Assembly: GCA_027972325.1 (NCBI GenBank)
Contig: JAPMOS010000001.1
Coordinates: 1,211,001-1,275,000 of the forward strand
DNA: 64,000 nucleotides
Reading direction: 5' to 3'
Origin: Paratrimastix pyriformis
Lineage: Eukaryota; Preaxostyla; Paratrimastigidae
Shown here: one piece after another, positions 1 to 64,000 of the stretch
How the letters are laid out: each line of letters begins with the position of its first letter
Numbering within the stretch: the first letter of the stretch is position 1
The notes under the pieces: generated by a model
Told to the model about the DNA's origin: nothing
Databases searched by the model: none
Seen by the model: only the letters and a program-made list of their open reading frames with translations
Position numbers and translations under genes: made by a program

Positions 1-819
1 CGGTCAGTGGGCAGCCTCACGCCCATGGGCACGCTGCCTGCCCTACACCCGCCACCCCGTTCCTTCTCACGGTCCCCCTCCGATCGGCACGGTCCGCCAC
101 AGGGGCCACCAACCGGCCGCAGGAGCTCGATGAGGCGGCCCGGCGGCGGATGACGACTCGGCTGTACATTCCCCTCCCCGACCCGGCCGCCCGGCGGCAG
201 CTGGTCGAGCGGCTCCTCGGGCAGCACGACCACTCGCTCCTCCCCGAGGACATCGCGGGCATCGTCGAGCGCAGCGCCGGTCGGTGTCCCTCCGCACCCC
301 CGCTGCCCATCTCTTCGACCTCTCTGCTTTTATTTTCCCGGTACTTCTTGCTCTGCCTGACACACCCGCCCATCCTCCGCCCCTTTGTCCGACAGGAGGG
401 CACCATGACCATTCGTCTTCATCACTGCCCCCCCCCCCCCCCCCCCCCCCCAGGGTACAGCGGGAGCGACCTGCATGCGCTCTGTGCCCAGGCGGCGCTG
501 GGTCCGCTGCGGGAGGTGCGCGACATCGCCACCCTGCGCCCCTCTGATGTGCGGCCCATCGGGCTGGTCGACTTCGAGCCGGCCTTCCGCAGGGTCTGCC
601 GCGCGTCCTCGGCCCTCGGCCCTGTCTCATCGATGGCCCTCGGGTTCGGGTTAGGTGCGGGCCTCGGTGGACCCCAAGGACCTGGTCTCGCTGCAGGATT
701 GGAACCAGCGCTTCGGCTCCTTCGGGTTGCAGGACGCCGACCCCAACGCGGCCGCGGCCGCAGCGGCGGCCCAGAGGACGGGCACCCCCTCCCCGCCTCC
801 GCATCCCTTCCCCTCGTAA
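1..819 (+). CDS. Fidgetin/spastin/katanin-type AAA ATPase, C-terminal part
   Basis: This is the 3' end of a gene that enters from the left edge. An intron ends at 102, and coding runs 103-279, 454-593 and 655-819 (TAA). The peptide starts with ATNRPQELDEAARRR, the classic end of an AAA module (sensor-1 Asn and arginine-finger region of the meiotic clade). It continues with LYIPLPDPAARRQLVERLL and then GYSGSDLHALCAQAALGP, the small helical-bundle subdomain. The C-terminal VDPKDL-x-WNQRFG helix is typical of fidgetin-like 1, spastin and Vps4 relatives. These enzymes sever microtubules or remodel ESCRT and recombination complexes using ATP. Fidgetin-like 1 is the best guess because the tail ends in WNxxFG, but the N-terminal domains that would decide it lie outside. 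Both introns open with GTC (GTCGGT, GTCTGC); the first ends in a roughly 24-base poly-C tract. Confidence 0.8.
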
Positions 820-1241
820 CCGCCGCATCGGAATGTTTGATCCGCTGGAACAACAAGGGGAGAAAGAAAAGGAAGATCAGGGCGTCAGTGACCCTCGGGT
901 GGCGGTGAGGGTGACACCGATTGCCAGCCGTCGGCCCTCGGCTCGCCGCCCCCGCCCAGAGCCACCACTTGGAAGCCCCCGCCGGTGGCCCACTCAGGGG
1001 GCGATTCGGTGGCTGTGGCTGTGGCGGGCGGCAGAAGCGGGGGCGCCGAGTGAGCGGTGGCGGTGGCCTGCGTCGCCGGGTCGGTGGCTGTCGCGGGGGG
1101 CGCTGAGCCCGGGAGGGCGGCAAGGTCGCGGGCAGGCAGCGGAAAAGGCATCTCGGTGGGGATCCGCCACCGGGCGGGCTTCCCGGGGAGCGGATGCAAA
1201 GTGACCAGAGCAATCTGCGCCCAACCGCGCAACGCACATGA
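820..1241. other. Convergent intergenic gap
   Basis: This GC-rich stretch lies between the stop of the AAA ATPase (+) and the stop of the metallophosphoesterase (-). It must hold both 3' untranslated regions and terminators. The open frames across it are low-complexity Pro/Arg/Gly translations with no family resemblance, so no gene is called. Confidence 0.6.
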
Positions 1242-61800: not shown

Positions 61801-64000
61801 ACCTGCGGGCCCGCATGGCCCGGGCCCAGCCGCAGACCCTCACCCCGAGCTGTGCGCCCAGTACGGGGTGCTGGCCCAGGCCCTGCAGGACGAGACCATC
61901 CCCGGCAGGGTCCGCACCTCCCCCCCCCCCCCCCCCCCTCGCTGCCCCACACGGCCACCGTGGGGCATGCTGCTGGGCGCTCGGGATGGCGGCCCGCTCC
62001 TCGCCCACCACCGCCGCCGTCCATCACCGGGGTCTCGGCTGGTGATGGCGGTGTCGGGCGCAGCTGCCTCACCACCTGGCCGTCATCCACCGGTGGGTCG
62101 CCGTCTTCGCCAAGGCCGTGCAGTTCTTCTACGACCGATGGTCGCCTGCTCCTCCCCGCCTGCTCCTCCCCCGCCTGCTCCTCCCCGCCTGCTCCTCCCC
62201 CGCCTCCTCCCCGCCTGCTCCTCCCCGCCTGCTCCTCCCCCGCCTGCTCCTCCCCGCCTGCTCCTCCCCGCCCTCCACCCACCCCCGGGTCACGAGCTGC
62301 CTTTGCCGGATCCCCTCCGCCGCCCCTCCCTCACTGCCTGCATGCCCTCTCGCGGGGTCTGTGTGTGTCTGTGTCTGTGTCTGTGTCTGTCTGCCAGCCG
62401 GATGAACTCGCCGCTCTTCCGCACGCCCACCTCGCCCCGCCACCGGCGGCCGGGCTCCCTGGGCGGGTCCTCGTCCCCCACCCGCCTCGTCGTGGCCGAC
62501 CAGCCCCCCTGCACCCCATCCTCCGCCTCGGCCCACACGGCCTCCCCGCGGGCCGCCCCTGCTGCCGAGCGGGACCTCCCCCCCTCCCCGGCCGCCGCCC
62601 CGCGCGGGATGGCCGCCTCACCCCGGGTGGCCGGGTCGCCCCGGCTGACCATCCGCACCCGAGGCGGCGCCCCCAGCCCCAGCCCGGCCTCATCGGCCTC
62701 AGCCGGGGGCCTCTGGGAGGCCACCTTCGTGACGGCGACCAGCCCGCAGCCGGGCGGTTCGACCAGCCGCAGCAGCAGCCTGCTCGGCCCCGGGGGGATG
62801 GCGGCCAGCCCGTCCCAGGCGCGTGCCCTGAGCCAGCTGGCCGGGGTCAGCGCCGAGGACAGCTCGGCCCTGCTGGAGGGCGAGCGGAACCCGCTGCTGC
62901 CCCCCGACGACGGCCTCCTGGCCGAGGCCGAGCAGCAGCCCCGCCCGTCGCCCGTCCCCGAGTTCCGCCAGCGGCCCCTCACCCTAGGCGCCCTGCTGGC
63001 CTCCGGCAAGCAGCAGCCCGCCGCCCCCAGCCCGAGCCCCTCGGCCCGTGCCGCCGCCGCCGCCCCGGACCCGGAGGTCCCCGCCGGGGGATGGGAGCCG
63101 CCCCCCGTGGCCCAGTCGCCCGGGCTGAGCCGGGCGGCCCTCGCCCAGGCCCTGGCCAGCCCCACCCGGCGGTCGGACCTGACCCGCCAGCGCCGCGCGG
63201 GGGTCGTGCAGGGCCTGCCGGGGGCCTCCCTGGGCCCGCTGGCCTCGGAGGCCCTCCGCGAGGAGCTGCGCACCCCGCCCCGGGCCGCCCTCGGGCGCGC
63301 CCTGGCCCTGGCCGAGGCCCGCCAGGCCGCCCGGTCCGCCGACGATGCCGCCCAGCAGGCCGCCCAGGCCATGGCCACGGCCGAGCAGCGCCGCCAGCGG
63401 GAGCTGGAGGCCGACGAGGAGCCCGCGGGCATCGTCCTGCCCAGCCAGCTGCCCGAAGGGCCCGTCATGGCCCCCGCCCAGGCCCTCCAGCTTCCCGAGC
63501 GGCCCCCCTGCGAGCCGGTGGTGCCCCTGGCCGGACCGGCCCAAGGCGGGGAGGCCGTAGGGCTGGCCCAGGCGGCCGCTCAGATGACCCAGCGTTCCTT
63601 CGGGAATGGCCTCGCGACCGCAGGCGGCATGGAGGCCGATGAGTTGGCCGTCTTGACGCCCCAGGTGTGTCAGGCCCTCAAGGCCATGCTCGCCCGGGCC
63701 GAGGCGGCCCCCTCCGTGAGCCCCGAGGCTTACCAGCAACTACTGGCCCAGAACCAACTCCTCGTTGAGCAGGTGACCACGCTCAACGCTCACCTCAAGC
63801 ACCTCGAGGTCTGCTGCCCCTCCCCGCCCGTGCTGCAACTTACCGTCTTCTCTCCCCCAGGCGGCCAACCAACAGCTCATCGAAACGGTTTCATTGGATT
63901 TGGAGCCGGGCGCCTCCGAGCAGGCTGATACTCCACCGCCTACCCAGCATCAGGAAGAGAGCGGGCCACTTTCCCAACAGGTACCACCAGAATCAGAAGG
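55861..64000 (+). CDS. Giant NHL-repeat protein, 3' end beyond window
   Basis: Exons 55861-56016 and 56068-56176, and a long exon from 56226, hold phase. The start is MSAPPHQAVSSDGADDDTIR, then helical RRIVKGVISGAQSSHLSSLR. A very long Pro/Ala/Ser-rich disordered region with a Gln tract follows (56226 to about 57900). About six NHL beta-propeller repeats then lie between about 58010 and 60340: LKAAFNAPADICMGPGGILY, VTTVAGSGAYGFVDGDVG, ARFAMPHGICVSPNGHK, HLYVADSRNHVIRRVDL, GHADGEARQGAMFRYPHKIA, WTLAGTGAPGCADGRFG and LFVCDLGSHCIRQVQGLDYI. Helical segments (VYAERNRAIMAAILGQAA, LKALRAMGYPLPGAVPLMQL, VIHRWVAVFAKAVQFFYDR) and another disordered stretch reach the last exon of the window, a leucine-rich coiled coil (LLAQNQLLVEQVTTLNAHLK). 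Such propellers are interaction platforms; no catalytic domain was seen, so no function is given. Confidence 0.7.
60842..60956. repeat. (TGGC)n tetranucleotide repeat
   Basis: About 28 copies of TGGC/GGCT lie in the NHL-repeat gene, just after the exon ending HFVYSSGG. A 4-bp unit would rotate frame only every 12 bp, giving an open Leu-Ala-Gly-Trp reading. It is judged intronic from its position. Confidence 0.9.
61560..62280. repeat. Pyrimidine-rich minisatellites in NHL-gene introns
   Basis: Two tracts are seen: CATCCATCACCCCCG 15-mers at about 61585-61700 and CCTGCTCCTCCCCG-type units at about 62150-62275. Both are between short exons of the NHL-repeat gene and consist almost only of C, T and A on the coding strand. 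Confidence 0.8.

What the first reader, a model, noticed from the sequence alone, without database searches (positions are those of the whole stretch)
1..64000. Genome-wide non-standard 5' splice site GTCYG in place of GTRAGT
Across at least eleven gene models on both strands, the donor sites that keep frame and protein homology read GTCCG[CT], GTCTG or GTCGG. Examples: 2685, 2933, 3449, 29231, 30308 and 54837 on +; 4906, 4583, 1679, 22984 and 17497 on -; and the GTCTG class at 27739, 27914, 29379, 30442, 31245, 47767 and 55377. Position +3 is almost always C, while the usual eukaryotic preference is A or G, and the +4 to +6 bases do not match AGT. Acceptors are ordinary (C/T)AG. Standard U1 snRNA pairs with GTRAGT, so this lineage should have a changed U1 5' end, or rely on another recognition mode such as U6 or protein factors. 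Gene finders trained on other species would miss most of these exons.
Basis: partly seen in the sequence, partly recalled or inferred. Interest (0 to 1): 0.78.

Follow-up and report, generated by a model that had tools for sequence, protein, structure and literature searches.

The report
Splice signals rewritten alongside U1 RNA
In this free-living anaerobic protist the start signal of most introns examined has changed from the usual GTRAGT to GTC-G, and the small RNA that reads that signal (U1) carries the two matching base changes in every copy found, a natural rewrite of a code thought to be nearly frozen across eukaryotes.

Summary
The finding holds up, and its main prediction came true. 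The window belongs to Paratrimastix pyriformis (Preaxostyla): a public ThrRS of that species lies on a contig of the same length as ours, 1,707,755 bp. Eleven clean junctions, from a transcript-derived and an annotated protein, have +3 C at 9, T at 2, and +5 G at 11. A gene finder told only "GT...AG" gives 156 of 311 stable introns as GTCNG and 0 as GTRAG. All 8 U1 genes found begin AUACAGACCUUG where the Rfam consensus has AUACUUACCUGG; the complement is CAAG|GUCUGUAU. A search with free bases at U1 positions 5-6 behind the shared snRNA promoter element finds only these 8 loci. U6, U2 and U5 cores are standard. So U1 positions 5-6 became A-G, matching +4 U and +3 C, and U1 now shares the heptamer AUACAGA with U6. 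My searches of the paper library found no description of this.

The parts
2539..3677 (+).
   Evidence: Pfam E 2.8e-58 on the spliced model; transcript-derived protein P0001, 98% identical over the query, maps over residues 1-224 of 224 with 1 mismatch
2591..2646 (+). intron 1, donor GTTTGT
   Evidence: bonus for GT and AG only; the motif-free placement 2589-2644 gives the same protein
2685..2725 (+). intron 2, donor GTCCGC
   Evidence: motif-free spliced alignment; the only GT-AG placement among its equivalents; not found by the decoder
2933..3024 (+). intron 3, donor GTCCGC
   Evidence: motif-free spliced alignment; decoded in 5 of 5 runs
3103..3247 (+). intron 4, donor most likely GTCCCC; left out of the clean counts
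   Evidence: exon and transcript protein differ by one base in a G run, so the placement is not certain; both alignments put it elsewhere
3449..3578 (+). intron 5, donor GTCCGC
   Evidence: motif-free spliced alignment; decoded in 5 of 5 runs
22838..22984 (-). intron in SETD6-like gene, donor GTCCGC at 22984
   Evidence: decoded 5 of 5; decoded protein aligns to SETD6 across it; not recovered by the spliced alignment to SETD6
22634..22704 (-). intron in SETD6-like gene, donor GTCCGT at 22704
   Evidence: decoder and SETD6 alignment across the junction; not recovered
27968..29543 (+). UFD1-like gene with zinc fingers; donors in the donor-informed model GTCCGG GTCTCC GTCCGT GTCCGC GTCCGC GTCCGT GTCTGC
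   Evidence: UFD1_N2 E 5.5e-14 and zf-TRAF 28.5 bits, over cut-off
28141..28258 (+). intron in UFD1-like gene, donor GTCCGG
   Evidence: inside the UFD1_N2 match
29231..29289 (+). intron in UFD1-like gene, donor GTCCGT
   Evidence: donor-informed model only; completes a CxC zinc finger and lifts zf-TRAF from 25.8 to 28.5 bits
29379..29428 (+). intron in UFD1-like gene, donor GTCTGC
   Evidence: decoded 5 of 5; inside the zf-TRAF match of the donor-informed model
53231..53333 (-). intron in EamA/SLC35F-like transporter, donor GTCGCT (an exception at +5)
   Evidence: within the TPT and SLC35F matches
4531..4583 (-). intron of an unidentified gene, donor GTCCGC at 4583
   Evidence: decoded 5 of 5 in GT-only runs; no Pfam match for the decoded protein

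Best explanation
Paratrimastix pyriformis has re-specified the U1 / 5' splice site code. U1 positions 5-6 (UU in the consensus, pseudouridines in human and yeast) have become A-G in all copies found, so the U1 5' arm AUACAGACCUUG is complementary to CAAG|GUCUGUAU. Introns match: +3 is C (sometimes U, a G-U wobble), +5 stays G, while +4 and +6 are loosely kept and often C in this GC-rich genome. The unchanged U6 ACAGA box can also form Watson-Crick pairs with +2 to +6 (UCUGU), so U1 and U6 carry the same heptamer AUACAGA and would read the same donor in turn. Shown: the donor bias, the U1 change in all copies found, normal U6/U2/U5 cores, U1C and LUC7 matches. Inferred: that U1 pairs with the donors in the cell, that U6 forms the extra pairs, and the history GUAUGU -> GUCUGU from a state like that of the oxymonad Streblomastix.
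For: U1: 8 Rfam matches, 8 of 8 identical over the first 21 bases. Aligned to the Rfam consensus, the 5' arm differs at positions 5, 6 and 11. The 24 snRNA loci examined (8 of 8 U1, 8 of 10 U2, 4 of 4 U6, 4 of 7 U5 matches) all have CCATAA 52-66 bases upstream; U1 starts after AATTC in 8 of 8, U2 in 5 of 8, so these look like working genes with a set start. The pattern CCATAA-N45-60-ATACNNACCT finds the same 8 loci and no other; its reversed control finds 1. Donors: 11 clean junctions: +3 C 9, T 2; +5 G 11 of 11. With four of the 119 other ThrRS homologs listed as templates and a GT/AG bonus, 7, 7, 7 and 6 of the 7 ThrRS donors come back. Adding 12 homology-supported ones: +3 C18 T4 G1 A0, +5 G 22 of 23. 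GT-only decoder. Of the 16 possible U1 5-6 dinucleotides the four with G at 6 pair best with decoded donors; the real A-G is second on the exon-GT contrast (3.30; G-G 3.58; U-U 1.73). Streblomastix donors keep A, U, G at +3 to +5 (PMC1501061, passages).
Against: +4 is C in 12 of 23 supported donors and +6 is C in 11 of 23; neither pairs with U1 A5 or A3, and by score alone G-G at U1 5-6 would fit better than the real A-G, which is only third on the raw mean and on the intron-GT contrast. T at +4 and +6 is commoner than at exon GTs (OR 1.79, 1.89) but rarer than at intron GTs (OR 0.60, 0.67). In three sampled regions +3 C is only 25-46% of 13-20 introns each (C112, C441, C212), which I read as decoder noise in repeat-rich DNA but did not prove. 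When the decoder could use any dinucleotide as donor, GTCCGC was the top hexamer but only 13 of 279, and CC (56) outnumbered GT (29). The choice of the 12 homology-supported donors was made by hand after seeing them. No RNA reads were mapped; U1 expression and its 5' end were not measured.
Confidence: 0.88

Rival explanations
1. The donors are changed but U1 is no longer what selects them: U6 (with U5 and proteins) does, and the U1 change is a neutral by-product or keeps another U1 role such as protection from early polyadenylation.
For: The U6 ACAGA box equals the consensus and is complementary to UCUGU at +2 to +6; C at +4 and +6 leaves the U1 helix weak; Hudson et al. report U1-associated proteins nearly absent in the metamonads they studied (PMC6679479, passages).
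Against: Eight U1 copies with an identical, specifically changed 5' arm complementary to the donor at +3 are hard to explain without selection for pairing; U1C and LUC7 matches exist.
Confidence: 0.07
2. A base-composition artefact: in GC-rich DNA a gene finder prefers GT followed by C, and the U1 change is coincidence.
For: The window is 67.7% GC, introns are C-rich, and +4, +6 and +7 look alike.
Against: +5 G (61% against 27% and 31%) and -1 G (60% against 37% and 27%) are not C bias, and +3 C exceeds both exon and intron GT controls; junctions from a transcript-derived protein and from the species' annotation agree.
Confidence: 0.03
3. A second, canonical or other U1 (or a minor-spliceosome U11) serves many introns, so the change is partial, as with the alternative U1 in the diplonemid S. 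specki.
For: Only 41 of 992 U1 candidates were scored; the assembly is not closed; a weak U12-like match exists (44.9 bits, cut-off 53).
Against: A canonical 5' arm should score higher, not lower, against Rfam U1; the promoter-anchored pattern with free bases at 5-6 finds only the 8; 0 of 311 decoded introns read GTRAG.
Confidence: 0.05

Closest known systems
Standard U1 / GTRAGT recognition
   Same: GT-AG introns, a U1 that aligns to the Rfam model end to end, U1C and LUC7 matches, U1 bases opposite +1, +2, +5 and +6 unchanged
   Different: U1 positions 5-6 are A-G instead of UU; donor +3 is C or U instead of A or G in 22 of 23 supported donors
GUAUGU-type donors of yeast and of the oxymonad Streblomastix strix
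   Same: G at +5; U tolerated at +4 and +6, pairing with the U6 ACA
   Different: Streblomastix keeps A at +3 (PMC1501061, passages); here A at +3 is 0 of 23 supported donors
Alternative U1 of the diplonemid S. specki
   Same: A natural U1 with a changed 5' arm
   Different: There one copy keeps the conserved arm and the other has a run of C (PMC12621601, passages); here no canonical copy was found
+4 A/U switching in Saccharomycotina
   Same: Donor preference shifts within a clade; the authors named pseudouridine-5 to A in U1 as a possible compensation
   Different: They found ACUUACC invariant where U1 was found, 227 of 230 species plus 9 of 10 outgroups (PMC10581693, passages); here that change is present, with position 6 as well

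Membership tests
U1 snRNA (RF00003) | Rfam covariance match over the full length | tested here: inconclusive
   8 full-length matches, best 60.2 bits, E 3.7e-13, all below the gathering score of 69.5
U1 snRNA (RF00003) | 5' arm AUACUUACCUG | tested here: not met
   AUACAGACCUUG in 8 of 8
U1 snRNA (RF00003) | stem-loop I with GAUCA, Sm-like site and 3' hairpin | tested here: met
   L001 aligned to the consensus; its single-sequence fold is more stable than 200 of 200 shuffles, but that minimum-energy fold pairs part of the 5' arm
U1 snRNA (RF00003) | expressed, capped, in a snRNP | not testable with these tools
   only the shared snRNA promoter element was seen
U2-type GT-AG introns | GT and AG ends, U2 branch-site arm GUAGUA | tested here: met
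   the 11 clean junctions can be placed as GT-AG; U2 arm of L015 equals the consensus
U2-type GT-AG introns | donor +3 purine, GTRAGT | tested here: not met
   1 of 23 supported donors has a purine (G) at +3; GTRAG 0 of 311 decoded
U12-type introns | donor [AG]TATCCTT (recalled) | tested here: not met
   none of the 23 supported donors begins so

The most novel reading that the evidence does not exclude
A eukaryote in which the U1 5' arm has been wholly replaced genome-wide, with both conserved pseudouridine positions lost, so that U1 has converged on the U6 ACAGA heptamer and both snRNAs read one and the same complementary donor (GUCUGU). The splice-site code of U1 would then be evolvable by stepwise compensation (GUAUGU to GUCUGU), not frozen.
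Probability: 0.75. Interest if true: 0.88.

Novelty: new variant of a known kind. Interest (0 to 1): 0.85.

Why it matters
The U1 5' arm is, as I recall, among the most conserved sequences in eukaryotes; a study of Saccharomycotina considered compensation in U1 and found none (PMC10581693, passages). An intron-rich genome (311 stable decoded introns in about 0.34 Mb) with matched change in U1 and donors makes testable how a splice code can move without breaking gene expression, what the U1 pseudouridines are for, and how U1-U6 hand-over works when both share one sequence. It also suggests that gene finders with default donor models would misread this genome and perhaps its relatives (inference).

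Tried and rejected
Raw k-mer excess (GTCTGT 255 against 79.6 expected) may be confounded by GTCT-type simple repeats, so I do not lean on it. METTL16 loss as the cause of a +4 shift: not supported, a family match over cut-off is present, and SNRNP27 too. The decoder allowing any donor dinucleotide was too imprecise at boundaries: CC 56, GT 29 of 279. A homolog search with the UFD1-like protein scored none of 1611 candidates under the cut-off. CCT genes were located exon by exon but their DNA could not be fetched. The PDB search with the serpin piece at cut-offs 1e-38 and 1e-24 gave no rows. The spliced alignment to SETD6 (low identity) did not recover the decoded introns, and LCAT was recovered only with the GT/AG bonus. 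An A-to-inosine reading of U1 A3/A5 to explain C at +4/+6 was considered and has no evidence here. One search failed with a script error and was rerun.

Rows dropped: of 27 decoder introns listed I kept 12 that lie inside a Pfam or PDB match with a continuous reading, and dropped 15, by hand and after seeing the donors. Outside the match, short, or cut by the end of the stretch: UFD1 GTCTCC; SLC35 GTCACC and a 39-base GTCCGC; SETD6 GTACGG; serpin GTCTGT, GTCTGC and a 25-base GTTTTT; CDC48 GTCTCG and GTATCG. Inside or at the edge of a match but judged wrong or unclear: SETD6 GTATGG, RPC5 GTCAAA and GTCTCA, LCAT GTTTTT (inside Pfam, past the PDB match), CDC48 GTCCCG and GTCGAG (the last skips conserved residues). 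With these six put back the tally would be +3 C22 T5 G1 A1 and +5 G 23 of 29. CFAP299 intron 4 (GTCCCC) is also left out.
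Full report
What the window is. The 64-kb window is G000:C1:1211001-1275000 of a 56.06-Mb assembly in 495 contigs. A homolog search with a threonyl-tRNA synthetase decoded from the same contig returned a protein named Paratrimastix pyriformis on a contig of 1,707,755 bp, the exact length of C1. The published assembly has 633 scaffolds, 56,627,582 bp and 60.94% GC (PMC10703272, outline and passages), so ours is most likely that genome with some pieces missing. 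That paper trained its gene models with RNA-seq intron hints; its main text holds 'intron' twice, 'splice' once (in a reference) and 'snRNA' not at all.

Donors from independent evidence. The best hit of the window's CFAP299 protein is a translated transcript (GAFH01003221, EukProt); that GAFH is the P. pyriformis transcriptome is recalled, but identity is 98% over 100% of the query. A spliced alignment with no motif preference places its 224 residues on 2539-3674 with 1 mismatch. With a bonus for the dinucleotides GT and AG only, four introns come out clean: GTTTGT (2591), GTCCGC (2685), GTCCGC (2933), GTCCGC (3449). The fourth intron (probably 3103, GTCCCC) cannot be placed for certain because exon and transcript protein differ by one base in a G run. 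The annotated ThrRS, which I take to come from the RNA-seq-hinted annotation, maps to C1:101772-105055 with 0 mismatches in 717 residues and seven introns: GTTCGT, GTCTGT, GTCGGT, GTCGGC, GTCCGC, GTCCGC, GTCTGC. With four other homologs (of 119 others listed) as templates and the GT/AG bonus, the same donors come back: 7 of 7 with P0122, P0123 and P0126, 6 of 7 with P0129; the acceptor of the sixth intron is misplaced in three of the four, and each alignment shows extra false introns in divergent stretches. Sum of these 11: +3 C 9, T 2; +5 G 11. Twelve more lie in CDC48, RPC5, serpin, LCAT-like, SETD6-like, UFD1-like and SLC35-like genes within Pfam or PDB matches; of these the CDC48 donor and both LCAT donors were also recovered by spliced alignment, the two SETD6 donors were not, and the rest were not tried. 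All 23: +3 C 18, T 4, G 1, A 0; +4 C 12, T 6, G 5; +5 G 22, C 1; +6 C 11, T 10, G 2 (hand count; 15 rows dropped, listed under Tried and rejected).

Donors without prior. A gene finder with a periodic coding model and only 'GT...AG' as splice rule was trained and run on the window plus 200 kb from seven other stretches, then run on these plus 24 snRNA loci. In its first pass, before any intron training, GTCCGC was already the commonest donor (24 of 301). Introns found in all five parameter settings with at least 60 bases of exon on both sides number 311. Against 2751 other GTs in flanking exons and 2313 in introns, +3 C (OR 3.5 and 4.5), +5 G (4.2 and 3.5) and -1 G (2.6 and 4.0) stand out; GTCNG is 156 of 311, GTRAG 0 of 311. 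In the window alone GTCNG is 56 of 91, outside 100 of 220. The set contains false introns: by my reading one in CDC48 and one in SETD6, and three repeat-rich regions show little +3 C. It also misses real ones, 2685 among them. With any dinucleotide allowed as donor the boundaries blur: CC 56, GT 29 of 279, GTCCGC still the top hexamer with 13. Acceptors are CAG-like (-3 C 73%).

The U1 test. Rfam U1 finds eight loci on eight contigs, all below the family's gathering score. All begin AUACAGACCUUGCUUGGCCAG. Against the Rfam consensus AUACUUACCUGG the arm differs at positions 5, 6 and 11. The 24 snRNA loci examined all have CCATAA 52-66 bases upstream; the eight U1 start after AATTC, as do 5 of 8 U2. 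A genome scan for CCATAA-N45-60-ATACNNACCT returns exactly those eight loci (reversed control: 1 match). In the copies aligned, U6 (AUACAGAGA), U2 (GUAGUA) and U5 (GCCUUUUAC) cores equal the consensus. U1C zinc-finger and LUC7 matches are present. In a fixed-register pairing score the four U1 variants with G at position 6 beat the other twelve on the mean and on both contrasts; the real A-G is second on the exon-GT contrast and third on the mean and the intron-GT contrast, G-G being first throughout; U-U is far behind.

Mechanism. U1 G6 faces +3 C (U by wobble), C4 faces +5 G, A7 and C8 face +2 and +1, C9 faces -1 G: these are the positions with a visible bias. A5 and A3 would prefer U at +4 and +6, found in 6 and 10 of 23 supported donors; C there pairs with nothing and probably reflects mutation pressure. 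The same heptamer AUACAGA stands in U1 and U6, so the U6 ACAGA box can pair with UCUGU at +2 to +6 during hand-over; this is inference. Streblomastix, an oxymonad (a group close to Trimastix), keeps A-U-G at +3 to +5 (PMC1501061, passages), which suggests a GUAUGU ancestor in which a U1 A5 would pair with +4 U, followed by +3 C with U1 G6. That order is a hypothesis.

What is known. Parker et al. named pseudouridine-5 to A in U1 as a possible compensation for +4 U and found ACUUACC invariant where U1 was found (PMC10581693, passages). One diplonemid has an alternative U1 with a C run beside a conserved one (PMC12621601, passages). The two nucleomorph U1s described keep the conserved donor-binding motif (PMC6461891, passages). 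Searches: GTCTGT with U1 snRNA, 0 papers; GUCUG with U1 snRNA, 8 listed, on other subjects by title, none opened; P. pyriformis with genome and intron, 6 listed, one opened; oxymonad with intron and spliceosome, 22 found, 20 listed, two opened; U1 snRNA with coevolution and intron, 22 listed, three opened; Preaxostyla with snRNA, 0; Paratrimastix with splice site, 0; two more combinations gave 0. None that I opened describes this case; the library lacks most subscription papers and holds no bioRxiv preprints as such.

Verdict. The pattern is real, holds across the sampled stretches taken together, and is matched by a change in every U1 gene found. What is missing is direct RNA evidence for U1 expression and pairing. 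I rate it a new variant of a known kind and of high interest.

Noticed in passing
G000:C432:103343-103517 (-): A single full-length U12-like match below the Rfam cut-off (44.9 bits, cut-off 53), hinting at a minor spliceosome in this species.
   Followed up: no
L001-L020, L049-L052, 52-66 bases upstream of each snRNA start: A shared element CCATAA upstream of the U1, U2, U5 and U6 genes examined; U6 copies L010 and L011 also have a TTATAA nearer the start.
   Followed up: partly
L009-L012 and L001-L008: U1 and U6 share the heptamer AUACAGA in their donor-pairing arms; in the Rfam consensus they share only AUAC there.
   Followed up: partly
L032-L034 (C441:500001-530000), minus-strand decoded genes: Two decoded proteins look like reverse transcriptases of retroelements (FADDVSVLAES and RPIGISETLCRLAMR motifs, by eye).
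   Followed up: no
L035-L037 (C112:400001-430000), also L021-L022, and a similar one in L038-L040: A family of leucine-rich proteins with few decoded introns and a shared WVDEAFGGH-like stretch occurs several times in the sample (by eye).
   Followed up: no
window 3103-3125 and 31245-31265: Long C runs directly follow some donor-like sites (GTCCCCCC..., GTCTGTATCCCCC...); whether they act in splicing or are assembly-prone homopolymers is open.
   Followed up: no
window 5543-17192 (-): A very long decoded gene whose C-terminal part resembles autophagy protein ATG2 by eye (recalled); neither end piece had a Pfam match.
   Followed up: partly
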